Shown: positions 10,058 through 35,729 of the stretch, piece after piece | How the letters are laid out: each line of letters begins with the position of its first letter | How positions within the stretch are numbered: position 1 is the stretch's first letter | Assembly: GCA_021738045.1 (NCBI GenBank) | Contig: JAIPCU010000012.1 | Coordinates: forward strand, 1 to 35,729 | Source: Candidatus Methylopumilus sp. | GTDB taxonomy: Bacteria > Pseudomonadota > Gammaproteobacteria > Burkholderiales > Burkholderiaceae_B | DNA: 35,729 bases | Reading direction: 5' to 3' | Translations under genes and position numbers: made by a program | The notes under the pieces: generated by a model | What the model saw: only the letters and a program-made list of their open reading frames with translations | The model's database searches: none | Told to the model about the DNA's origin: nothing

Positions 10058-13000
10058 TTAGTCCCAGTGCCAGCCCACCTCGTCGCGTAACCATTTTGTA
10101 TAGCGCGGCATGTCGACCCACCCGACAGCGTCGGGGGCCTGCGGCAAGAGCGGTGACGAACGTGCCAGCAACGACTCGACCTGGCGGCGTACCTCAGCAC
10201 CCATTGCTGGGGCGTGATCCTGATAATTCACCCAAAGACGGCCATCGGGCTGATTCACTCGGCGATCCCCGCGCTGCACGGTTCGGGCAAATACCGCCCG
10301 CTCGTCATGAACTATCGGTCGGGTCACCGACGCTGCTTTGGGCCCAGCCCCAAGCGGCACGCCCGCCGCCTTCGCTTGCCAATGCATCCAAGCCAAGGCC
10401 ACCTGAGACAAATCACCAGGGGTCGAGCCAGGCGACGCCTCTCGCGTCAAGTAGCCGCCGCCAATATCGGCATGCGCTCCAACAAAGGCGCGCTCGACGA
10501 CATTACCCCCCACCTGCGTACCGCGCGCCGAGGTCAACGGAAACAACCACCGGTGCTCATGCAAGGCCACAGCATGCGCCACCCACTTCCAGGCCGGGGC
10601 AATGGTCAAATCAAACGCAGCATTGCCAGCACCCAGCACATTAAACTGCGCCACCGTGTCAAACAAACCCATGAAACGCAGGTCTACACAACTCGACAAG
10701 GTGCCGCGCTGAGGGTCTTGTAACCAAAAGCGGCCATCCCGCAGATGCTGAGCCACTCGGTTCCCAAAATGGCGGGCAAGCGCTGCCCCGCGCGAAAACC
10801 CCACCACATCCAACGCTAGCGCCGGTGCATCCTCTCTCTGCAAAGCCACTGCATTGAGCCAGCGCTCCCACTGCTGATCCACACGACTCGCCCCAGACCA
10901 AGCAACGGCCGCATCCGATGCATGCTTTGCACTTCCTACCTCAAGATCGCCGGCAGGGCCTTCGATATATTTCACCGCCCCACCCTGATATTGCTTGGCA
11001 AACAGCCAAACGTTGGTTTGCGACGTCGGGCTGTTACCCGTGCCATCAAACGCAAACAGCAATAACCCAAGTGGGTCAACGTAGCGCCGCGGTTGCTGCT
11101 CGGCATACCCATACTGACTGTTCCCCGGGATTGGGCCCAGTGGATCAGGTTCAAGATAGTGTCCCCAGCGAGGATCGTAGGTTCGTTGATAGTTGTCATG
11201 CCAGCCCGTAAGCGGATCCGCCACTTGCCCTGGCAAGCGCAAGGGCTGCACAAAATCTTTTCCTAGGTCGTGGTGCTGCTCGAGTAACTCACCAAGAGGA
11301 CTATAAGTGGCTTGCCAACGAACCGCCTGCCGTGCGTCGGTCAGCAACTGGGGCAACCCCACGGGATCAGTATGAAAGAAATAGAGGCTCGCCTGTGTCG
11401 CGTCATTGCCGTATTCAATCAGACCGATCGGCACCTGCTGCACGTAGATAAAGCGTCGCTTCACGCGCAGGCCGCTTTTATTTTCGTAGGCTTGTGCCAC
11501 CATCTTTTGCTGGTCATACAAAAACTGCGTACGCCCGTGCTGATCTTCGCGCCAGATTTGTTCGCCGACGGCGTTATGACCATAAGTCACTGCTTGTCCT
11601 AGGCGACCCTGATCCACGACGCGCGTGAGCCGGCGCTGTGCGTTATAACGCAGCACAAAACGGTCAACACGTGTCGGTAACCCGGTTGCATCACGCGCGA
11701 TCGCTTGACGCGCTGCGCCTGACACACGCCAGGCATACTCTCGTGCCGACGTCTGATTCTCAGCTGACGACCAACTACGATGTCGACGCAAGCGTTGCTC
11801 AACATCATAGTCATAGCGTGTATCCCGCGTCTGTCCGAGCAACGTCATGCGCTCGTGACTGAGCCGTGCGCGCTGATCGGTAGCGACTTGATGCCGATAC
11901 AGTGGCAACCGCGTGGCCGGTTGATACACCAGCAGCTGCTCAAGCCGCGCGGCCTGCCACCCAATGGCCTGAGACGTGGCCATTTGCCTGACGGTTAACA
12001 GACCGTTGCCGTGCACAAGCCCATTTGGGCCGATCTCGACAACCTTCTGCCGACGCCCGGCGGCAGTTTCCCACTCAACCGCTTGCAAGCTTGTGTGCGA
12101 CCAGCGATAGTGCAATACACCCCCTTCTGGCAACACGTGCGTCAGGCGTCGGCCCCGCGCATCATAAGTAAACGTCTCGCGATACCTCCACTCAGGGCGA
12201 AACACGTTGAACTGACCCGCGCCCGCTGTTCGTCGAAACACCACACGCTCGCGTAAATCGCCGTCTGAATTAAAGCGCCAGTGCTGCGTCTCTTCTGGGT
12301 GTGCAATCACAGAGGGGCGCCTACCTCGCCAAGCTACGCGTACCTCGACGGGTTCTGCAAAGTTCGAGCGCGCCTTGAAGCTTCGCACCCTTCTAAAAAT
12401 ATCAAAGTCCCAACGCCAAAGATCTTGCTCACCAAAGTTACGCAAGACTAAGTGCGCGTGCGGCAAGGGCCGTTCGCTTTGCGAAGCCCCATCGTGTCGC
12501 CCCATTGGCCTTTGCAACTGATGTGACCTCTGATACACAAGGCGCTCAGTCGCAACACCACGACTATGCCATTGAGTTAAATGTCCCGACCCAGCAAACC
12601 AAAGATGTAAGCCTGGCCATCCTTTGCCATGAAAAGACAAGTGCCGGATCGCATGCCGCGTATCCTGCTCAAGCACAAGCCCGAGTGCCGAGTCAGATAA
12701 AGCCGTTGGTAATCCTGCTGCAAGTAACTCTGGCGTGCCCGCGGCAAATGTCTGCACCCGACCGGCTCGGTCATACTGCCACGTGTGCGTACGCAGTGCT
12801 TTCGTCGCCGTTTGATCAACAATCGAGATCCCCGTCACGGCGTGCGCATGCCCAGCTTGTAGTCGCTCTTCGTGATGATAACGACGACGCATCCCATCAG
12901 GGCGAAGCACCTCAGCCAAGGCGTTCGCCTCATAACGATAGTGAAAGATCCCCAGTGGCGACTCGACAGCAACCAGCTTGTGCAAAGATTCAGGGTTCAT

Positions 13001-13708
13001 CGTGTCTAGCGATGCCGGTTGTTGAGCCATTGGCGCCGCATAGATAAAACGCAAACTCTGTTTGGTCTCAGTATCGGTCACTCGGTCAAGCTCGCCGTAC
13101 CATTTCGATGGTGATTGATGCCGCACAATATGCACAGCAAGTGCCTCACGACACTTGCCCTGTAGTCGACTGCGTTGATTCGACTCAACAAACGACCAGC
13201 CAATCAAGCGACCCGGCTCGTCAAAACGCAAACACTTTCCAAACGGCCACTGCCACTGCCAGGCTTTCCCCTTGCGCGTAATCACTCCATCCTCACGCGC
13301 TGGTCCAACACAACGTTGCGTTTGATCGCAATGAAAGGTCAAACGGCTACCGTCCGCCTGAAGCACCTGTAGGTGCGCACCCATCCAATAGAGTCGCGTG
13401 TCATACGACCACGACCAACCTCGCCCCAACGCACCCTCTCGAGGATCCATCGCGTTGTAGTGCCTCACCAACTCTAGGCCCGGTGCACTGACTAAACTGG
13501 GCAAATCCGTATCACGTTGATATTTATTACCATTGCGTCGATCAACCGGGTTGCCAATGCCATGGTTAGGGCTGCTGTGCGGGCGACCTAACGTCGCAAC
13601 ACCGCCTTGCTGACATGGGTTGCCCAGCTCTGTGACTTGACATGACGAACCCGCTGCCCATGCTGCTTTTAATAAAAATAACAATGCTCCGATCAACCAA
13701 AAGCGCAT
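10058..13708 (-). CDS. Secreted Rhs-repeat protein with C-terminal Tle1/DUF2235 lipase-like domain
   Basis: A 1216-residue polymorphic-toxin-like protein. Residues 1-20 look like a Sec signal peptide (MRFWLIGALLFLLKAAWA, then AGS). A DUF6531-type start follows (GNPVDRRNGNKY through LELVRHYNAMDPREGALGRGWSWSYD), then degenerate YD/Rhs repeats. The Rhs core ends with YLEPDPLGPIPGNSQYGY and VDPLGL at 877-882. Immediately after it comes LLFAFDGTGN (883-892), the opening of a DUF2235/Tle1 alpha/beta-hydrolase domain. The nucleophile elbow is GFSRGAA with S972, followed by MGLFDTV and GAHADIGGGY, which supply the likely Asp and His. The family includes type VI phospholipase effectors. No PAAR or VgrG, no type VI genes and no candidate immunity gene are adjacent. 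A periplasmic or secreted lipase-type effector is inferred; target and delivery route are unknown. Confidence 0.88.
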   Translation of the reverse strand: MRFWLIGALLFLLKAAWAAGSSCQVTELGNPCQQGGVATLGRPHSSPNHGIGNPVDRRNGNKYQRDTDLPSLVSAPGLELVRHYNAMDPREGALGRGWSWSYDTRLYWMGAHLQVLQADGSRLTFHCDQTQRCVGPAREDGVITRKGKAWQWQWPFGKCLRFDEPGRLIGWSFVESNQRSRLQGKCREALAVHIVRHQSPSKWYGELDRVTDTETKQSLRFIYAAPMAQQPASLDTMNPESLHKLVAVESPLGIFHYRYEANALAEVLRPDGMRRRYHHEERLQAGHAHAVTGISIVDQTATKALRTHTWQYDRAGRVQTFAAGTPELLAAGLPTALSDSALGLVLEQDTRHAIRHLSFHGKGWPGLHLWFAGSGHLTQWHSRGVATERLVYQRSHQLQRPMGRHDGASQSERPLPHAHLVLRNFGEQDLWRWDFDIFRRVRSFKARSNFAEPVEVRVAWRGRRPSVIAHPEETQHWRFNSDGDLRERVVFRRTAGAGQFNVFRPEWRYRETFTYDARGRRLTHVLPEGGVLHYRWSHTSLQAVEWETAAGRRQKVVEIGPNGLVHGNGLLTVRQMATSQAIGWQAARLEQLLVYQPATRLPLYRHQVATDQRARLSHERMTLLGQTRDTRYDYDVEQRLRRHRSWSSAENQTSAREYAWRVSGAARQAIARDATGLPTRVDRFVLRYNAQRRLTRVVDQGRLGQAVTYGHNAVGEQIWREDQHGRTQFLYDQQKMVAQAYENKSGLRVKRRFIYVQQVPIGLIEYGNDATQASLYFFHTDPVGLPQLLTDARQAVRWQATYSPLGELLEQHHDLGKDFVQPLRLPGQVADPLTGWHDNYQRTYDPRWGHYLEPDPLGPIPGNSQYGYAEQQPRRYVDPLGLLLFAFDGTGNSPTSQTNVWLFAKQYQGGAVKYIEGPAGDLEVGSAKHASDAAVAWSGASRVDQQWERWLNAVALQREDAPALALDVVGFSRGAALARHFGNRVAQHLRDGRFWLQDPQRGTLSSCVDLRFMGLFDTVAQFNVLGAGNAAFDLTIAPAWKWVAHAVALHEHRWLFPLTSARGTQVGGNVVERAFVGAHADIGGGYLTREASPGSTPGDLSQVALAWMHWQAKAAGVPLGAGPKAASVTRPIVHDERAVFARTVQRGDRRVNQPDGRLWVNYQDHAPAMGAEVRRQVESLLARSSPLLPQAPDAVGWVDMPRYTKWLRDEVGWHWD

Positions 13709-20063: not shown

Positions 20064-21542
20064 TTATCCCTTTAAAGTTTGTTCAAGCACATGCAGCGTA
20101 TGGTTAAAGTCTGCTTGTTTCGCGCGGAGATCGGTTATTTTTCTCACCGCATGTAGCACCGTAGTGTGATCACGACCACCAAACAGATCGCCAATTTCTG
20201 GCAAGCTTTTTTGCGTCAGTTCTTTAGCTAAATACATCGCGACCTGACGCGGCATCGCAATGTTGGCAGGTCGCCGCTTTGAATACATATCAGCGACCTT
20301 CATTTTGTAATAATCAGCGACAGTTTTTTGAATGTTCTCAACCGTCACTTGCCCGCTAGACGCCGACAACAAATCTTTTAAAGCATCTTTGCAGATATCA
20401 ACGTTGGCAACTTCGCGGCCATGAAAACGCGCATACGCCACAACTTTTTTCAGCGCACCCTCTAGCTCTCGAACGTTACTGCGCAAATGTTTGGCAATAA
20501 AAAACGCAACATCTTCGGGTAGTGTCACGCCCTCTTGCTCGGCCTTGCGCAACAAAATGGCGACGCGCATTTCAAGCTCGGGAGGTTCAATTGCAACCGT
20601 GAGCCCTGAGTCAAACCTTGAGATCAACCGCGTATCAATACCCGAGAGTTCTTTGGGATACGTATCGCTGGTAATGATGATTTGTTTGCGCTGCGCAACC
20701 ATCGCCTCAAAGGCGTAGAAGAATTCTTCTTGTGTACGGTTCTTTCCTGAGAAAAACTGAATATCGTCGATCAGTAGCAGGTCAAGAGAATGGTAATAGC
20801 GTTTGAAATCATCAAATGCTTTGCGTTGATATGCTTTGACAACGTCTGATACATACTGGTCTGCGTGAACATATCTGACGCGCGCACCTTTGCCCGCCGC
20901 GAGCAACGCATTACCAATGGCATGGATCAAATGCGTTTTACCCAAACCAACACCGCCGTACAAAAACAACGGGTTGTATGAGGTGCCGGGATTTTCGGCA
21001 ACCTGTAAGGCGGCAGCCCGCGCGAGCTGATTTGCCTTGCCGGTTACGAAATTATCAAAGGTAAGTTCTACGTTTAAGCGCGAGCGCTCGTCGGCCGATG
21101 AGGTGACAGCGTGTGCCGCCGTGACACCATTTAAATGCGATGTCTGCACAGCTGCTTGGCCTGGTGGTAGCAGTTGCGCGTCGAGCGGGTTGTCACTCAG
21201 ACTAGACAGCGGCGAAAGCGTCGTGGCCTCACCTTGCCCAGCCGCCGCCTCGTGTTGGGCGCTTGCCTTTGGGCTTGGCGCTCGCAACTCTTGTTCAGGT
21301 GCGGGCAGTTCAAACAAAACCTGTACGGGTCTGTTGTACCAGTTCGATGCAAAGGTTTCGATTTGATGCGCAAAGTTTTTGCGCACCCAGTCAAGTTTGA
21401 ATCGATTTGGCGCAGACAACCGTAAGCACGCCTGCGCTTCATCGAAGGCAAGCGGGATCAGCGGACGTATCCACGCGCTGATTTGCTGGGGAGGAAACTC
21501 CTGCTCTAGGTGCAAGACGCAGGACTGCCAAAACTGGTTCAT
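20064..21542 (-). CDS. dnaA: Chromosomal replication initiator DnaA
   Basis: Initiator ATPase of 492 residues that binds 9-bp DnaA boxes and melts the origin. Domain I (1-80) interacts with helicase loaders. Domain II (about 81-155) is a variable Ala/Ser/Gln-rich linker. Domain III carries Walker A GGVGLGKT (196-203) and Walker B LLLIDD with D259-D260. Domain IV has the box-recognition signature [15 protein letters not shown] starting at 455, identical in the recognition loop to E. coli DnaA, so canonical TTATNCACA boxes are expected. It is the first gene of dnaA-dnaN-gyrB. A DnaA box overlaps the -35 position of its predicted promoter, suggesting autoregulation. Confidence 0.98.
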
Positions 21543-21564: not shown

Positions 21565-21593
21565 ATTCTACCCTGTCAGGGCCAAGGTTATCC
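21565..21593 (-). promoter_or_regulatory. Predicted dnaA promoter overlapped by a DnaA box
   Basis: On the minus strand a -10 hexamer TAGAAT (21570-21565) lies 17 bp from 21593-21588. There the -35 hexamer is poor (GGATAA) and lies within the DnaA box at 21588-21596. Confidence 0.45.
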
Positions 21594-25733: not shown

Positions 25734-26516
25734 CTACTCGATGGTCCAGCCACCATCAACGGGCAACACTGCACCCGTAATATCCTTTCCAGCCTCACTA
25801 CATAAAAATACGGCAAAGCTCGCCACACTTTTCATGGCGACAAAGCGACCCGTCGGATGACGACTTGAAATGTAATCGTGCTCGGCCTCTTCAATAGGGA
25901 TTCCAGCTTTTGCGGCATTACCTGCAATCCGCTCAACGATTGGCGGTGTCGGTACTGTGCCGGGGCACAGAGCATTGCAAGTGATCCCCTCTGTTGCAAC
26001 ATCCATTGCTGTACTTTTTGTTAAACCTATCAATGCGGTTTTAGTCGTGATGTACGCGACGCGATTCGCTGTCGCAGTAGTTCCGTATACCGAAGATATG
26101 TTGATGATACGGCCCCACTTCTTAGCCTTCATCTGAGGAACTGTTAAACGCGAGGTATGGAAAGCAGCCGATAAATTTACCGCGATCGATTGATTCCAAG
26201 ACATAGTATCTAGTGTATCGATTGAAGCAAAATTTCTAATCACTGCGTTGTTGATTAAGATATCAACACCGCCAAATGTCTCGCTGGCGTGTTTAACCAG
26301 CGCTTCGATTTCGGATACAACTGTTAAGTTTGCCTGGCTGTAGATGACAGATACGTCGTACATTGCTCGCAATCGTTCACTCGCCTCTTGCATTTGCTCT
26401 AGTGGCTCGAGTCCGTGCAAAACAATATTTGCTCGTTGTTCGGCTAGTGCCTCAGCCATTGCATAACCTAAACCAGCGACCGACCCAGTAATTAAAGCTG
26501 TCTTACCGCGCAACAT
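25734..26516 (-). CDS. Short-chain dehydrogenase/reductase, 3-hydroxybutyrate dehydrogenase-like
   Basis: A 260-residue classical SDR. The NAD-binding TGSVAGLG is at 10-17, NNAV at 89-92, and the catalytic Ser142-Tyr155-Lys159 lies in ISSVYG and VAYITTK. The C-terminus TGAVLPVDGGWT is typical. Overall it resembles bacterial D-3-hydroxybutyrate dehydrogenases in length and tail (RHPTGRF...SVASFAVFLCSE). However, the substrate-binding segment between Ser and Tyr (TTATANRVA) does not show the residues I associate with those enzymes, so the substrate is left open. It is convergent with mnmE; its upstream side is an AT-rich region with DnaA boxes. Confidence 0.85.
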   Translation of the reverse strand: MLRGKTALITGSVAGLGYAMAEALAEQRANIVLHGLEPLEQMQEASERLRAMYDVSVIYSQANLTVVSEIEALVKHASETFGGVDILINNAVIRNFASIDTLDTMSWNQSIAVNLSAAFHTSRLTVPQMKAKKWGRIINISSVYGTTATANRVAYITTKTALIGLTKSTAMDVATEGITCNALCPGTVPTPPIVERIAGNAAKAGIPIEEAEHDYISSRHPTGRFVAMKSVASFAVFLCSEAGKDITGAVLPVDGGWTIE

Positions 26517-26599
26517 ATAGGTCCCCTATTTGAATCGAGTGAATCAACACTTATGTTGTTTCTACACATCAAATGAAAATTAGTTACAAAAAATTTAGC

Positions 26600-26608
26600 T
26601 GTGGATAA
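26600..26608 (-). promoter_or_regulatory. DnaA box (TTATCCACA, reversed)
   Basis: A perfect match to the high-affinity consensus, oriented opposite to the other two perfect boxes of this gap. Confidence 0.75.
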
Positions 26609-26714
26609 CAAGGGCTAGCGGGCTGTGAACAAACTGTGCATGAACAAAGAGTAAGTCTGACTTGTTGAGCAATCACAAAACTTATTCAACTTACTCCACA
26701 CAACTAAACAGAGG

Positions 26715-26723
26715 TTATTCACA
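26715..26723 (+). promoter_or_regulatory. DnaA box (TTATTCACA)
   Basis: A perfect match to TTATNCACA, in the AT-rich gap upstream of the SDR gene. Confidence 0.72.
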
Positions 26724-26777
26724 ACGTTAAAATTATGTAAGTCATTGAAAATAAATAGAAATAAAACTTTATACCTC

Positions 26778-26786
26778 TTATCCACA
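26778..26786 (+). promoter_or_regulatory. DnaA box (TTATCCACA) beside GC cluster and AT-rich tract
   Basis: A perfect consensus box followed at once by GGCC and TTATTA and then a long A/T tract. This order (box, GC cluster, trio-like bases, AT-rich DNA) resembles the basal unwinding arrangement described for bacterial origins. Confidence 0.75.
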
Positions 26787-26871
26787 GGCCTTATTATCCA
26801 TTAGTCTTTATATATAAAAACAATAAAAGAGATAAAACACCAAAGCAATACGGCGTACAAAAAGTTGTTGT

Positions 26872-26900
26872 CGATAAAAAAAATTTTCATTGTTTTATCG
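26872..26900 (-). terminator. Weak AT-rich hairpin after the aminotransferase gene
   Basis: CGATAAAA (26872-26879) and TTTTATCG (26893-26900) form an 8-bp inverted repeat just beyond the aminotransferase stop. It is AT-rich and lacks a clear T-run after the stem, so terminator activity is doubtful. Confidence 0.3.
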
Positions 26901-26908
26901 TGGTTAAA

Positions 26909-28078
26909 TCAAACCTTCGCTAAACGTTCAATTGCTAAATCAAGGGTGGCCTCCTGTTTAGCAAAACAAAATCGAACAAGTTGGTGATTCGAGGCGGGGG
27001 CATCGGTTGACTGATAAAAAGCTGAAACCGGAATGACAGTCACGCCATGGGTTTGTGTCAACCAAACTGCAAAGTCTGCTTCGCTTTGATCGGATATGTC
27101 GCTGTAATCAGCCAGTAAAAAAAAGGTTCCTGGACTTGGCAAAACCTTGAAGCGAGTTTGCCTTAAGCCATTCGAAAGGTAATCACGTTTAGTTTGATAA
27201 AAGCCTGGCAGGCTCAGATAAGTACTTGCATCGGCGGTGTATGCGGCCAACGCGTGTTGAAAAGGTGATGGCACCGTAAAGACCATGAATTGATGAACTT
27301 TTCTAAGTTCTGCTGTCATGTGTTTAGGCGCACAGCAATAGCCAATTTTCCAGCCTGTCGTATGGGTTGTTTTACCAAATGAAGAGATAACAAAGCTTCT
27401 GGCGGCCAGAGCTGGTCTGGTACAAAGACTAATGTGTTGAACACCATCAAAAATAATGTGTTCATAGACTTCGTCTGAAAGTAAAAATATGTGATGTTGT
27501 TGAACCAGCCTTTCTAACTCATCCAGGTCACCAGGAGTAATGACGGCGCCCGTTGGGTTATGTGGAAAATTGACAATGACCAATTTAGTTTTTTTAGTGA
27601 TTGCAGCGTGAACCAAGGTCCAGTCGACGCTATAAACAGGATTAGTTTGGCCCGGAGCACGCATTGGGACACTAATAGCCGTACCGCCCGCGAGTTTAAT
27701 GGCTGGGATATAGCAGTCATAGCAAGGTTCTAAAACGATTACCTCATCACCCGTTCCAACACACGCTAGTACGCTGGCCATGATTGCCTGTGTGGCACCA
27801 CTGGTAATCGTAATTTCAGTGTCGGGGTCATATTGGTGTTGGTAAAGGGCTGCAATTTTGTGATTAATCACCTCACGCAAGGGCATTACGCCAGCCATCG
27901 CGGGATATTGATTAAAACCCTTGTCCATCGCTTCAGATACCAAACGTAAGAGAGCTGGTTCAGTATTGAAATCTGGGAAGCCCTGCCCTAGATTGATGGC
28001 CTGATATTCCAAAGCCATCTTGCTCATGGTGGTAAAGATGGTGGCCCCAACTTCGGGCAGTTTTGATTGTATTTGCAT
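26909..28078 (-). CDS. PLP-dependent aminotransferase (methionine aminotransferase, YbdL-like)
   Basis: A 389-residue fold-type I aminotransferase. The PLP lysine is K236 in SSFGKTTHTTGWKIGY; N174 (NPTG), D202 and Y205 (SDEVYEH) complete the cofactor site. The N-terminus SKLPEVGATIFTTMSKMA and the sequence around VHQFMVFTVPSPFQHALA read like E. coli YbdL, which prefers methionine as amino donor; kynurenine aminotransferases are close relatives. It is transcribed leftward and sits between two DnaA-box-rich gaps, so it appears embedded in the origin region. No Shine-Dalgarno sequence is evident before the ATG. Confidence 0.9.
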   Translation of the reverse strand: MQIQSKLPEVGATIFTTMSKMALEYQAINLGQGFPDFNTEPALLRLVSEAMDKGFNQYPAMAGVMPLREVINHKIAALYQHQYDPDTEITITSGATQAIMASVLACVGTGDEVIVLEPCYDCYIPAIKLAGGTAISVPMRAPGQTNPVYSVDWTLVHAAITKKTKLVIVNFPHNPTGAVITPGDLDELERLVQQHHIFLLSDEVYEHIIFDGVQHISLCTRPALAARSFVISSFGKTTHTTGWKIGYCCAPKHMTAELRKVHQFMVFTVPSPFQHALAAYTADASTYLSLPGFYQTKRDYLSNGLRQTRFKVLPSPGTFFLLADYSDISDQSEADFAVWLTQTHGVTVIPVSAFYQSTDAPASNHQLVRFCFAKQEATLDLAIERLAKV

Positions 28079-28210
28079 GTTGGTTGGTTGGATGATGAGT
28101 CAGCGCGTACGAAGCCGCAAGTGAGCAATCGTCAATAGGTGTAGATGATTATTTGGTATTTGGATGATTCTTCAATAGAAAAGACCTATAAGCAGGATAT
28201 ACACACGAAA

Positions 28211-28232
28211 TGCACATGATATGCACATGATA
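28211..28232 (+). repeat. 11-bp direct tandem repeat
   Basis: TGCACATGATA occurs twice in a row, 21 bp to the left of the first perfect DnaA box of this region. Its 11-bp period matches the spacing of the DnaA-box-like motifs further right. Confidence 0.75.
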
Positions 28233-28252
28233 TTAACAACTTACTCACTGAT

Positions 28253-28261
28253 TTATCCACA
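28253..28261 (+). promoter_or_regulatory. DnaA box (TTATCCACA)
   Basis: A perfect high-affinity consensus box, just left of the 148-bp repeats. Confidence 0.78.
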
Positions 28262-28347
28262 AATTAAGGTTCCTAGGCGTTGGTAGGAAACTATTTATCC
28301 CAATTTATACAGAGATATTCAAAAGTTATACCAAGGTTATACCCAAG

Positions 28348-28356
28348 TTATACACA
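28348..28356 (+). promoter_or_regulatory. DnaA box (TTATACACA), unit 1
   Basis: A perfect TTATNCACA box, 18 bp before parS 1. Confidence 0.75.
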
Positions 28357-28373
28357 GATCACAGCGTTTGTAA

Positions 28374-28389
28374 TGTTCCACGTGAAACA
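28374..28389. promoter_or_regulatory. parS: parS site 1
   Basis: TGTTCCACGTGAAACA matches the universal chromosomal parS consensus TGTTNCACGTGAAACA. ParA and ParB are encoded 3-5 kb to the right. Confidence 0.95.
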
Positions 28390-28495
28390 ATCCCACCAAC
28401 TTACCCTCAAGTGAAGGTTTTAACTTGTTGGTAGGAAGTTATCTATCCCAATTTATACAGAGTTATCCAAAAGTTATACCGAGGTTATATCCAAG

Positions 28496-28504
28496 TTATA
28501 CACA
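28496..28504 (+). promoter_or_regulatory. DnaA box (TTATACACA), unit 2
   Basis: A perfect TTATNCACA box, exactly 148 bp from its counterpart in unit 1 and 18 bp before parS 2. Confidence 0.75.
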
Positions 28505-28521
28505 GAACCCTGCGTCTGTAA

Positions 28522-28537
28522 TGTTCCACGTGAAACA
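28522..28537. promoter_or_regulatory. parS: parS site 2
   Basis: TGTTCCACGTGAAACA, identical to parS 1 and exactly 148 bp from it. Confidence 0.95.
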
Positions 28538-28574
28538 ATCCCATCGACTTACCTTCAAGTGAAGGCTTTAACTT

Positions 28575-28685
28575 GTTGGTAGGAAGTTATTTATCCCAAC
28601 TTATACAGAGTTATCCAAATGTTATACCGAGGTTATAGCCAAGTTATACGCAGAATCCTGCGTCTGTAATGTTTCACGTGAAACA
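28575..28685 (+). repeat. 148-bp repeat, unit 3 (truncated after parS)
   Basis: Matches units 1 and 2 from GTTGGTAGGAAGTTAT to parS 3 (111 bp), then diverges. DnaA-like motifs start at 28591, 28601, 28611, 28622, 28633 and 28644. The last is TTATACGCA, one change from the perfect box of the other units. Confidence 0.92.
28670..28685. promoter_or_regulatory. parS: parS site 3
   Basis: TGTTTCACGTGAAACA, a fully palindromic parS, again exactly 148 bp from the previous site. Confidence 0.96.
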
Positions 28686-28834
28686 TTATGGAGATGCTGG
28701 AGCTTTGTATGACTGCCGCCCGGTAAATCGTTAAACTTGCAAACCGAAAACAAGCTAACAGGTTGATCACCCGAGGATAAAGGCTCAACTGCTGTGTTTA
28801 GAAAGAATTGTCCAAAATTGGCACTAATTATTAA

Positions 28835-28850
28835 TGTTTCACGTGAAACA
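28835..28850. promoter_or_regulatory. parS: parS site 4, adjacent to the mnmG promoter
   Basis: TGTTTCACGTGAAACA, perfect and palindromic, 165 bp from parS 3 and outside the repeat units. It ends three bases before the predicted -35 of the mnmG-rsmG-parA-parB promoter. Confidence 0.96.
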
Positions 28851-28853
28851 ATC

Positions 28854-28881
28854 TTTCAATTTAAAACGACAAGTCTATAAT
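28854..28881 (+). promoter_or_regulatory. Predicted mnmG-rsmG-parAB promoter
   Basis: A perfect -10 TATAAT (28876-28881) with a weak -35 TTTCAA (28854-28859, spacer 16). The predicted start is near 28888, about 25 nt before the mnmG ATG. No strong Shine-Dalgarno sequence is visible before that ATG. Confidence 0.5.
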
Positions 28882-28912
28882 CCATCCCCCGACTCAATTA
28901 AATGTACGAACC

Positions 28913-30817
28913 ATGAATCACCCCACTGTTTTTGATGTTCTTGTTGTTGGAGGCGGCCACGCTGGGACAGAGGCTGCGCTGGCTTCTGCTAGAAGTGGCG
29001 CAAAGACGCTTTTACTGACACATAATATTGAAACGCTTGGGCAAATGTCGTGCAATCCCTCTATTGGAGGTATTGGAAAAGGACATTTAGTTAAAGAGAT
29101 CGATGCCCTTGGTGGTGCAATGGCAATTGCAACAGACGAGTCAGGAATTCAGTTTCGAATATTAAATGCATCTAAAGGACCAGCTGTCCGCGCTACACGT
29201 GCTCAAGCGGACCGTGTTCTATATAGACAGGCAATTCGTAGTCGACTCGAAAACCAACCAAATCTTTGGTTGTTTCAACAATCTGTGGACGATTTAATAC
29301 TTGAGGGTGATCGCGTTGTTGCTGCAGTCACTCAATCAGGTATAACCTTTCGAACAAAGGCTCTGGTCCTGACGGCAGGGACTTTTTTAAATGGCCTTAT
29401 TCATATCGGGTTACAGAACTATTCTGCAGGTCGCGCTGGCGATCCGTCTGCCTCGTCCTTAGGGGCTCGGCTAAAAGAGTTAAAGCTTCCACAAGGACGC
29501 TTAAAAACAGGTACGCCGCCTCGAATCGATGGGCGCACAATTGATTATTCGTTGGTAACTGAGCAGCCAGGCGATTTAGATCCCATTCCTGTGTTTTCAT
29601 ATTTAGGCAGCCAAGCACTTCATCCAAAGCAAGTCCCTTGTTGGGTCACGCACACGAACGCACGGACACACGAAATCATTCGCAGTGGCCTCGATCGCTC
29701 ACCAATGTACAGCGGAGTGATTGAAGGAGTTGGCCCAAGATATTGTCCTTCGATTGAAGACAAGGTCCATCGGTTTGCCGATAAAGATTCACATCAAATA
29801 TTTCTTGAGCCAGAAGGTTTAACAACGAACGAAATCTATCCTAACGGAGTGTCAACAAGCCTACCCTTTGATATTCAGCTGGCACTGATACGCTCAATGA
29901 AAGGGCTTGAAAATGCTCATATCGTTCGACCAGGCTATGCAATCGAATATGATTATTTTGACCCGAGAGAGTTAAAAGCTACGCTTGAAACCAAAAGTAT
30001 TCAAGGATTGTTTTTTGCGGGTCAAATCAATGGAACAACGGGATACGAAGAGGCGGCAGCCCAAGGGTTGATTGCAGGCATGAATGCGGCGCGTGCAGCT
30101 CGAGATGAAAGCCCATTTATCTTGCGCCGTGACCAGGCCTATATGGGTGTACTGATTGATGATCTGATTACTAAGGGCGTCACAGAGCCTTATCGCATGT
30201 TTACCTCTCGCGCAGAATACCGCCTAAGTTTGCGAGAAGATAATGCCGATTGGCGCTTAACTGAAAAAGGCAGAGAGTTCGGTTTGGTCGATGACCAACG
30301 TTGGAACACCTTTATCAAAAAGAAAGAAACGGTTGAAAACGAGGTTGCCCGCTTGCGTGCGACGTGGGTAAATCCACGCATGCTAGACCCCACTGTCGCG
30401 GTAAAAACGCTGGGTAAAGAAATAGAACGCGAGTACTTACTCTCCGATTTGCTTAAGCGCCCAAACGTATCTTATCAAAGCTTGGTGAATATGCCTCTAC
30501 AACAGGGGTTCGATTTGCCGGCGGGCTTGTTGCCCGGAGACGAGGCCGAACAAGTCCAAATACAAATCAAATACGAAGGCTATATCACACGTCAGCAAGA
30601 CGAGGTCGATCGCCATCAAGCCCAAGATACCTTGGCGATTCCACCTGATCTCGACTTTAGCGTCGTGACAAGCTTATCTATCGAAGTCCGTCAAAAGCTA
30701 AATGTGCACCGGCCTGAAACAGTCGGCCAAGCCTCTCGAATTTCTGGCGTCACGCCGGCCGCAATCTCTTTGCTGTTGATTCATCTTAAGCGCCACCAAT
30801 ATGGCAAGGCCGCATGA
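28913..30817 (+). CDS. mnmG: tRNA uridine 5-carboxymethylaminomethyl modification enzyme MnmG (GidA)
   Basis: FAD-dependent partner of MnmE in wobble-uridine modification, 634 residues. The dinucleotide-binding motif [12 protein letters not shown] is at 11-22. [40 protein letters not shown] and [22 protein letters not shown] are invariant family stretches, and the C-terminal helical domain binding MnmE ends in [10 protein letters not shown]. The 5' part is AT-rich compared with genes outside the origin area. It is the first gene right of the parS/DnaA-box region and its stop overlaps the annotated start of rsmG. Confidence 0.98.
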
Positions 30818-32358: not shown

Positions 32359-33267
32359 ATGGTAACGAAGAAACCCAAGGGCCTAGGCCGAGGCCTTGAC
32401 GCGCTGCTTGGCGCAGACACCAATAGCTTGGATCAAGTTGGACAACCAGCAACACTCACAAGCGCACCAAATACGTTGTTGATCGAGCAACTACAGGCTG
32501 GAAAATATCAGCCTCGTACTCGCATGGACGAGGGTGCGTTGGCTGAGCTTGCAGACTCCATACGAGCTCAAGGAATCATGCAGCCAATTTTGGTTCGACC
32601 CCTAGATGCCCTCAAAGGTCAATACGAGATTATCGCTGGCGAGCGCCGTTTTCGTGCAGCACAGTTGGCCGGCTTAACAGAGGTACCGGTACTCGTTAAA
32701 CATGTTGCAGACGAACATGCTGCCACGATGGCGCTGATTGAAAATATTCAGCGCGAAGACTTGAATCCCCTTGAAGAAGCGCAAGGAGTGAAACGATTAA
32801 TAGAAGAGTTTGGCCTGACCCATGAGCAAGCCGCCACAGCAATTGGGCGCTCGCGCTCAGCCACCAGTAACTTGTTGAGATTGCTTAATCTCGCCACACC
32901 GGTACAAACGATGTTGTTGGCTGGCGATATCGACATGGGTCACGCCCGAGCGCTGCTCGCGGTCGACGCGGCAATACAAATACAACTTGCTAATCAAATC
33001 ATCGCTAAACGGCTCTCGGTGCGTGATGCCGAAGCGCTAGTGACGCGAACCACCAAAGAGCCCGGCAATAAAACGACGGCCAAGCCAACCAGCCAATCGC
33101 GCGACGTCACGCGCCTCGAAGAAACACTCTCTGATCAACTCGGCACGAAGGTGTCATTAAAAGTGGCCAGTAAAGGGCGAGGTCAACTGATCATCGACTT
33201 TCATGGGTGGGATCATTGTTCATCGCTCATTGAAAAACTTAATCTTAAAGAAGATATCGACGCATAA
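32359..33267 (+). CDS. parB: Chromosome partitioning protein ParB (Spo0J)
   Basis: A 302-residue CTP-dependent DNA clamp that loads at parS. The CTP-binding motif GERRFRAA is at 94-101, ENIQRE at 128-133 and the helix-turn-helix THEQAATAIGRSRSATSNLLRLL at about 154-176. A variable linker rich in Lys/Thr (about 233-250) leads to the C-terminal dimerisation domain ending IDFHGWDHCSSLIEKL. The N-terminus KPKGLGRGLDALLG carries the ParA-stimulating segment. Four parS sites lie 3.5-4 kb upstream. Confidence 0.97.
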   Translation: MVTKKPKGLGRGLDALLGADTNSLDQVGQPATLTSAPNTLLIEQLQAGKYQPRTRMDEGALAELADSIRAQGIMQPILVRPLDALKGQYEIIAGERRFRAAQLAGLTEVPVLVKHVADEHAATMALIENIQREDLNPLEEAQGVKRLIEEFGLTHEQAATAIGRSRSATSNLLRLLNLATPVQTMLLAGDIDMGHARALLAVDAAIQIQLANQIIAKRLSVRDAEALVTRTTKEPGNKTTAKPTSQSRDVTRLEETLSDQLGTKVSLKVASKGRGQLIIDFHGWDHCSSLIEKLNLKEDIDA

Positions 33268-35133: not shown

Positions 35134-35148
35134 CGTTGGTTCTCTTGT

Positions 35149-35235
35149 GGAGAGGTGCCCGAGTGGTTAAAGGGGGCAGACTGTAAATCTGTTGGCCTTG
35201 CGCCTACGTTGGTTCGAATCCAACCTTCTCCACCA
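35149..35235 (+). tRNA. tRNA-Tyr (anticodon GTA)
   Basis: An 87-nt cloverleaf with encoded CCA. The acceptor GGAGAGG pairs with CTTCTCC (one G-T pair), the long variable arm is of class II as in all bacterial tRNA-Tyr, GGTTCGAATCC forms the T arm, and the anticodon GTA is at 35183-35185. Confidence 0.97.
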
Positions 35236-35274
35236 AGACTCCAGCGTGTATGGGGATTAAACAGCTCGAATCGG

Positions 35275-35348
35275 GCGGGTGTAGCTCAATGGTAGAGCAG
35301 AAGCCTTCCAAGCTTACGACGAGGGTTCGATTCCCTTCACCCGCTCCA
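35275..35348 (+). tRNA. tRNA-Gly (anticodon TCC)
   Basis: A 74-nt cloverleaf with encoded CCA. The acceptor GCGGGTG pairs with CACCCGC, the discriminator is T, the anticodon loop CTTCCAA has TCC at 35307-35309, and the T loop is GGTTCGATTCC. The outermost anticodon-stem pair appears to be a G-A mismatch. Confidence 0.96.
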
Positions 35349-35429
35349 GCGGTCTATTTAAGTTGGTTTTACGCAGTACAGCAGTACCCGGTACAGATAG
35401 TCTTCGTGGAGTGCAAGCTCGGCGAATGC

Positions 35430-35504
<75 letters not shown>

Positions 35505-35578
35505 GTAAAGATTAAGCAGTCGACGGCAGTATCGTTTTTATCTCATTCAATAGCGTCAATCTAGGTCAGGAGCCCGTC

Positions 35579-35729
35579 ATGGCAAAAGGCAAATTCGAAC
35601 GAACCAAACCACACGTCAACGTTGGCACCATTGGGCACGTTGACCACGGTAAAACCACACTGACAGCGGCAATCACAACAGTGTTGTCGCAAAAGTTTGG
35701 TGGCGAAGCTAAAGGCTACGCACAGATTG
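35579..35729 (+). CDS. tuf: Elongation factor Tu (partial, N-terminus only)
   Basis: The first 50 codons of EF-Tu, which delivers aminoacyl-tRNA to the ribosome. [19 protein letters not shown] is followed by [14 protein letters not shown], which contains the G1 P-loop [14 protein letters not shown] (35567-35572) is a good ribosome binding site. The gene runs off the right edge. It is cotranscribed with the three upstream tRNAs, and secE-nusG would be expected next. Confidence 0.97.

What the first reader, a model, noticed from the sequence alone, without database searches (positions are those of the whole stretch)
28279..28685. parS sites embedded in 148-bp tandem units that also carry DnaA boxes
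Three parS sites start at 28374, 28522 and 28670, exactly 148 bp apart, each in the same place within a repeat unit. Every unit begins GTTGGTAGGAA, then has a row of DnaA-box-like motifs, then parS. Chromosomal parS sites near origins are well known, but as separate 16-mers. An amplified module that multiplies the initiator array and the ParB loading site together is unusual. It suggests coupled selection of replication initiation and segregation, much like plasmid iteron-centromere units.
Basis: partly seen in the sequence, partly recalled or inferred. Interest (0 to 1): 0.85.

Follow-up and report, generated by a model that had tools for sequence, protein, structure and literature searches.

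The report
Tandem DnaA-box and parS origin module
Next to the probable replication origin of an uncultured betaproteobacterium, a short DNA block that combines likely binding sites for the replication starter DnaA and the chromosome-segregation protein ParB has been copied in tandem; the combined block is shared by nearly all examined members of its genus, but this exact tandem repeat was seen in only two species and its function is untested.

Summary
In detail: three parS sites exactly 148 bp apart, each in a unit with a row of same-direction, mostly weak DnaA boxes 10-11 bp apart. A fourth parS (28835) was missed and unit 3 is cut short (111 bp). These four are the only parS sites found in the genome (pattern with <=1 mismatch; 82%-complete MAG). 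What is conserved is the composite [box array]-[15-17 bp]-[parS] before mnmG: 27 of 28 genus members, but 4 of 49 and 2 of 24 parS-bearing loci outside the genus. The 148-bp tandem is shared with one sister species only, where one parS has decayed; two other relatives hold diverged duplicate modules. It is probably not the strand-opening core of oriC: a separate cluster 1.5 kb upstream (26517-26908) carries TTATATATA, present in 22 of 22 genomes examined. Best reading: the distal DnaA-binding part of a split origin region fused to the chromosome's centromere, enlarged by unequal recombination. Coupling of replication and segregation here is inferred, not shown. New variant of a known kind.

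The parts
28279..28426 (+). Tandem unit 1 (148 bp): GTTGGTAGGAA, six box-like nine-mers at 28295, 28305, 28315, 28326, 28337, 28348, parS, 37-bp tail
28427..28574 (+). Tandem unit 2 (148 bp), 133 of 148 identical to unit 1
28575..28685 (+). Tandem unit 3, truncated (111 bp, no tail); its 3' flank resembles that of G018's native copy, so it is probably the original copy
   Evidence: by eye
28374..28389 (.). parS 1, TGTTCCACGTGAAACA
28522..28537 (.). parS 2, TGTTCCACGTGAAACA
28670..28685 (.). parS 3, TGTTTCACGTGAAACA
28835..28850 (.). parS 4, outside the tandem array, 78 bp before mnmG; a site 57-83 bp before mnmG is seen in many relatives
28197..28261 (+). Six box-like nine-mers in 11-12 bp steps left of the units (28197, 28208, 28219, 28230, 28241, 28253; only the last, TTATCCACA, is perfect)
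26517..26908 (+). Probable oriC core: TTATCCACA boxes at 26600 (-) and 26778 (+), TTATTCACA at 26715 (+)
   Evidence: boxes 178 bp apart in 12 of 22 genomes
26808..26816 (+). TTATATATA, AT-rich element, probable DNA unwinding element
   Evidence: 22 of 22 genomes; unwinding is inferred
26909..28078 (-). Methionine aminotransferase gene separating the two box clusters
   Evidence: NF006569, 574.8 bits
28876..28881 (+). TATAAT, probable -10 element of mnmG
   Evidence: sequence; promoter role inferred
28913..30817 (+). mnmG (gidA)
   Evidence: TIGR00136, 895.6 bits
30801..31511 (+). rsmG (gidB)
   Evidence: TIGR00138, 142.2 bits
31508..32308 (+). parA
   Evidence: ParA/MinD-type ATPase matches, below the curated cut-offs shown; position before parB
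32359..33267 (+). parB
   Evidence: TIGR00180, 190.3 bits, over cut-off
20064..21542 (-). dnaA
   Evidence: TIGR00362, 550 bits

Best explanation
The region in front of mnmG is the distal DnaA-binding part of a split chromosomal origin region, fused to the chromosome's parS centromere. The probable core of oriC, with oppositely facing boxes and the AT-rich opening element, lies about 1.5 kb upstream (26517-26908) beyond an aminotransferase gene. In each distal module DnaA is proposed to anchor on the strong box nearest parS (TTATACACA in units 1 and 2) and extend along weaker same-direction boxes set about one helical turn apart; ParB loads at the parS 17 bp away and slides over the same DNA. 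Tandem copies arose by unequal recombination between repeats; in the sister species parS itself looks like a crossover seam. Shown: the anatomy, the conserved composite and its spacing, the confinement of parS to this spot, repeated duplication. Inferred: binding by DnaA and ParB, the role as a second origin half, the recombination route, and any mutual control.
For: Composite in 27 of 28 genus genomes with readable upstream DNA (forward box ending <=60 bp before a parS, last 700 bp before mnmG): 44 of 66 parS sites against 30.5% of random positions in the same DNA; boxes 131 forward, 11 reverse. 10-12 bp phasing far above simulation. Boxes and parS conserved, spacer and flank not. In 28 genus genomes with a match, every exact TGTTNCACGTGAAACA lies in this one region. 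Core element TTATATATA in 22 of 22, perfect opposed boxes 178 bp apart in 12 of 22 (alignment). Similar core and box-parS junctions in Advenella (L033, L053); opposed boxes 180 bp apart and a box-parS junction, without TTATATATA, in Pusillimonas (L050). Cumulative GC-skew minimum 2.8-4.2 kb before mnmG in 4 genus genomes. G000 and G018 units form one group (support 0.91) and G000 units 2 and 3 pair (0.93). The 37-bp joining tail is shared between the two species (25-30 of 37 identical) and differs from the native DNA after parS 4 (8-13 of 37); in G018 a copy of the mnmG-proximal parS is followed by that tail.
Against: No binding or replication data. Most boxes are weak matches. The window's own skew is nearly flat from 19 to 35 kb and its absolute minimum is at 35134, not at the core; for two of the four skew genomes (G031, G011) the contig ends about 7 kb past mnmG. 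Of 29 family and order genomes searched, the two same-family ones nearest in MnmG (G036, G034) have parS but no boxes near it. G016 of the genus fails the 60-bp test, and G029, 99% complete, gave neither mnmG nor parS. The random-position control ignores shared descent. The order of duplications inside the G000/G018 group is poorly resolved. In Bacillus subtilis ParA control of DnaA does not need parS near oriC (PMC7614844, abstract).
Confidence: 0.58

Rival explanations
1. Neutral tandem duplication (compatible with the composite being functional). Short repeats near the origin recombine unequally; one box set and one or two parS would do, and the extra copies are drifting by-products.
For: The 147/148-bp interval is in 2 of 28 genomes; boxes in the array do not clearly vary less than other bases; the third G018 copy has a ruined parS, and the last box of G000 unit 3 is TTATACGCA.
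Against: parS in all three G000 units fits TGTTNCACGTGAAACA, and tandem copies are still present in both species although their mnmG genes differ at 5.4% of bases; duplicate modules also remain recognisable in G019 and G026.
Confidence: 0.45
2. Selection for parS number only; DnaA boxes are carried along because they lie beside parS.
For: Pandoraea horticolens L041 has a 233-bp tandem array with parS (3.1 copies) and no box within 200 bp of any parS; family member G034 has seven parS before mnmG with no box beside them. G018 still has four intact parS, if its two contig ends overlap as they appear to, after one copy decayed.
Against: One parS is reported as sufficient for segregation in P. aeruginosa (PMC4368675, title in search listing). 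Does not explain the box-parS junction in 27 of 28 genus members. L041 does have a box cluster about 0.4 kb left of its array.
Confidence: 0.3
3. The distal boxes are a regulatory DnaA-binding cluster (titration or DnaA-activity control in the manner of E. coli datA or DARS, or DnaA control of the mnmG promoter) and not part of the origin.
For: They lie outside the conserved core and in front of the mnmG promoter; their make-up varies between relatives, which suits a modulatory role.
Against: Regular 10-11 bp same-direction weak boxes ending in a strong one resemble origin arrays (E. coli arrangement recalled); the site is 1.5 kb from the core rather than far away.
Confidence: 0.3
4. The tandem array is itself the complete oriC, including strand opening.
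For: 11-bp AT-rich repeats at 28196-28233 lie beside it; GC content of 28001-29000 is 0.40.
Against: A better candidate core with TTATATATA in 22 of 22 genomes and opposed perfect boxes 178 bp apart in 12 of 22 lies at 26.5-26.9 kb, also at 0.40 GC.
Confidence: 0.12
5. Assembly artefact of a metagenome bin.
For: MAG in 218 contigs; the G018 array falls at two contig ends.
Against: Copies differ, lie inside a contig, and a related array recurs in another assembly.
Confidence: 0.04

Closest known systems
Caulobacter crescentus parS region bound by DnaA (Mera et al. 2014, as described in review PMC6399470; passages read)
   Same: Initiator DnaA binding sites at the chromosomal centromere; DnaA proposed to act on segregation there.
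   Different: The primary parS of Caulobacter is described as within 8-10 kb of oriC (PMC7671480 passage). Here boxes and parS form one repeated module about 1.5 kb from the probable core, with 11-bp phasing.
Vibrio cholerae chromosome II rctA/parS2 next to oriCII (PMC6399470 passages; PMC3688505 start of abstract)
   Same: parS embedded among initiator-binding sites beside an origin; ParB2 spreading alters initiator action.
   Different: Initiator is RctB on a secondary chromosome, not DnaA on the main one; no tandem composite unit in the passages read.
Deinococcus radiodurans cisII/cisMP (PMC7671480, passages)
   Same: Direct repeats that bind both DnaA and ParB and give origin and parS-like function.
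   Different: Secondary replicons, 18-bp iterons with non-canonical parS, upstream of parAB; here canonical parS and E. coli-type boxes beside the main chromosome's dnaA and mnmG.
Burkholderia cenocepacia oriC1 region (PMC4948915, one section and passages)
   Same: parS and DnaA boxes in the same main-chromosome origin region of a member of the same order.
   Different: Origin features are called dispersed and the exact position uncertain; no composite or tandem unit in the text read.
Bipartite bacterial origins such as B. subtilis and Helicobacter pylori (recalled, not looked up)
   Same: Two DnaA-box clusters separated by a gene, one with the unwinding element.
   Different: The intervening gene is an aminotransferase and the distal cluster carries the centromere.

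Membership tests
Chromosomal ParABS centromere | Canonical parS palindrome near the origin | tested here: met
   Four sites in 477 bp, none elsewhere at <=1 mismatch in the 82%-complete genome
Chromosomal ParABS centromere | parA and parB nearby | tested here: met
   parA-like 31508, parB 32359
Chromosomal ParABS centromere | ParB binding and origin segregation | not testable with these tools
   needs ChIP and imaging
DnaA-dependent oriC, core at 26517-26908 | Cluster of DnaA boxes with conserved arrangement | tested here: met
   Opposed perfect boxes 178 bp apart in 12 of 22 genomes, imperfect versions aligned in others
DnaA-dependent oriC, core at 26517-26908 | AT-rich unwinding element | tested here: met
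   TTATATATA in 22 of 22; unwinding itself not tested
DnaA-dependent oriC, core at 26517-26908 | GC-skew minimum | tested here: inconclusive
   2.8-4.2 kb before mnmG in 4 genomes; flat in the window, absolute minimum at 35134
Bipartite origin (distal half 28197-28685) | Second box cluster near the core, conserved in relatives | tested here: met
   27 of 28 by the box-parS test
Bipartite origin (distal half 28197-28685) | Second cluster needed for initiation | not testable with these tools
   needs origin-plasmid assay
Plasmid iteron-centromere unit | Plasmid initiator and iterons at the locus | tested here: not met
   Annotated neighbours are chromosomal (dnaA, dnaN, mnmG, rsmG); no similar DNA in PLSDB; the repeats are DnaA boxes
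Known RNA element | Rfam match | tested here: not met
   0 matches in 26400-29000 at gathering threshold

The most novel reading that the evidence does not exclude
A main-chromosome origin in which an initiator array and the ParB loading site form one dosage-adjustable unit, so that each extra copy adds both a DnaA assembly platform and a centromere, and DnaA occupancy and ParB clamp loading on the same 100 bp directly gate each other.
Probability: 0.25. Interest if true: 0.85.

Novelty: new variant of a known kind. Interest (0 to 1): 0.55.

Why it matters
How bacteria link the start of replication to the start of segregation is still being worked out. Here the two sets of sites are 15-17 bp apart in the closest relatives, kept at that distance while the spacer sequence drifts, and related species carry one, two or three modules. 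That is a natural series for testing whether ParB clamps and DnaA assemblies affect each other in cis.

Tried and rejected
Tandem array as the whole oriC: set aside after the conserved core was found. Plasmid origin: no match in PLSDB for 28196-28912. RNA element: none. Lower substitution in boxes inside the array: tested, not seen. Conservation of the 148-bp period across the genus: tested, not seen beyond G018. The dnaA upstream region as origin: one perfect box only, at 21588.

Rows dropped and limits. Of 32 genus genomes, G027 and G029 had no mnmG match and G009 and G020 no readable upstream DNA, leaving 28. One search used the last 700 bp before mnmG and, for G018, only the contig that carries mnmG. 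The first look at genome-contig loci used 71 of 80; one search uses all 79 of L021-L099 (L020 left out because its contig number and length match G016 of the genus; inference). In one search G001 fell below the 300-bp filter, so its genus count is 26 of 27; one search has 27 of 28. G045, with mnmG split over two contigs, was left out (28 of 29 handles used). The G018 row is numbered from its contig end, not from mnmG. The pairwise table is unaligned and misleading for some G018 rows; only its alignment and tree were used. Absence from print rests on search in an open-access library only.

Full report
What is there. The window is a whole 35.7-kb contig of a 2.96-Mb, 82%-complete metagenome-assembled genome in 218 contigs. 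MnmG is 79% identical to an unnamed betaproteobacterial MAG and 75% to Noviherbaspirillum and an Oxalicibacterium MAG, so it belongs among the Burkholderiales or close to them. Genes run dnaN-dnaA (minus strand), rnpA-yidD-yidC-mnmE (plus), SDR dehydrogenase and methionine aminotransferase (minus), then mnmG-rsmG-parA-parB (plus). The finding lies between the aminotransferase and mnmG.

Check. parS sites lie at 28374, 28522, 28670 and 28835, and no other site with <=1 mismatch to TGTTNCACGTGAAACA was found in the assembled genome. The 148-bp tandem is real. Nine nine-mers within one mismatch of TTATNCACA lie in the 407 bp against 0.7 expected, two of them perfect, in 10-11 bp steps. Six further box-like nine-mers stand in 11-12 bp steps left of the units.

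Relatives. Of 32 genus genomes held, 30 have mnmG and 28 readable upstream DNA; all 28 have two or more parS there at <=2 mismatches. In 27 of 28 at least one parS has a forward box ending within 60 bp upstream; 44 of 66 parS sites qualify against 30.5% of random positions in the same DNA, and boxes are 131 forward to 11 reverse. These genomes are related, so the counts are not independent. Outside the genus, parS before mnmG is common (49 of 79 loci, 24 of 28), but the junction is rare among them (4 of 49 and 2 of 24): two Advenella, one Pusillimonas, one Burkholderiaceae MAG, and family members G032 and G033. A genus-wide scan finds matches in 28 of 32 genomes; every exact TGTTNCACGTGAAACA lies in this one region, and five single-mismatch sites lie elsewhere in five genomes.

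Conservation inside the module. Between the seven closest genomes (12 units), pairwise identity is 83% in boxes, 76% in inter-box linkers, 93% in parS, 49% in the spacer between last box and parS and 40% in the left flank, while the spacer measured stays 15-17 bp long. Against a strong reading, inside the G000 array boxes do not clearly vary less than other positions.

Copy-number history. G000 and G018 units group together (0.91), G000 units 2 and 3 pair (0.93), and the order between is poorly resolved. The 37-bp tail that joins units is shared by both species (25-30 of 37 identical) and unlike the native DNA after the mnmG-proximal parS (8-13 of 37), so a first duplication probably predates their split. 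G018 has a 147-bp interval and then a 312-bp repeat in which a copy of the mnmG-proximal parS is followed by the tail, so the crossover seam probably lies at parS (inference). Its last array-side parS has decayed. Two-module relatives G019 (71%) and G026 (65%) have module flanks more alike than the other two-module genomes compared (45-52%), which suggests older duplications; but the tree puts G019's first module with G007 (0.95) and its second with G017 (0.72), so that one may be older than the species. Pandoraea L041 has a 233-bp tandem with parS and no box within 200 bp.

Where the origin core is. A second cluster at 26517-26908 has TTATCCACA boxes facing opposite ways, 178 bp apart in 12 of 22 genomes by perfect boxes, followed by TTATATATA in 22 of 22. 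Advenella shows a similar layout (by eye). Skew minima in four genomes fall 2.8-4.2 kb before mnmG, nearer this cluster than the distal one; in the window the curve is flat and its absolute minimum is at the right end. I take this cluster as the probable core and the finding as a distal one.

Mechanism. Inferred: DnaA anchors on the strong box beside parS and extends over weak boxes, as described for anchor boxes in E. coli (PMC6399470, passage); ParB loads at parS and slides (PMC7614844, abstract). The genome encodes SMC (TIGR02168, 1092.7 bits), which ParB-parS complexes recruit at origins in several bacteria (PMC7022226, passage). DnaA at a centromere is described for Caulobacter, and a centromere among initiator sites for V. 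cholerae chromosome II (PMC6399470, passages). Against tight coupling: parS location does not matter for ParA control of DnaA in B. subtilis.

Verdict. A new variant of a known kind: a box-parS composite near-universal in one betaproteobacterial genus as held, multiplied in some members. The striking part is the composite, more than the 148-bp period.

Noticed in passing
L041 (Pandoraea horticolens), -985 to -266 before mnmG: Tandem array of 233-bp units, 3.1 copies, carrying parS and no DnaA box within 200 bp; six boxes (<=1 mismatch) stand further left at -1572 to -1382.
   Followed up: partly
L180 (G034), -1003 to -72 before mnmG: Seven parS sites (<=1 mismatch) in under 1 kb, several in pairs, next to a short-unit CCGCAC repeat.
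   Followed up: no
L023 (Oxalicibacterium MAG), -3150 to -2560 before mnmG: Two opposed box pairs, both 157 bp apart, each with a TATATA element: a possible duplicated origin core.
   Followed up: no
L193 (G035): Family member with DnaA boxes before mnmG but no parS there at <=2 mismatches.
   Followed up: no
window 10058-13708: 1216-aa protein with an RHS repeat-associated core domain between argS and an iron-type alcohol dehydrogenase.
   Followed up: no
window 35149-35729: Contig ends after tRNA-Tyr, tRNA-Gly and tRNA-Thr; five other genus contigs also end 5-7 kb past the mnmG start (G011, G014, G016, G022, G031), perhaps at a repeated tuf gene.
   Followed up: no
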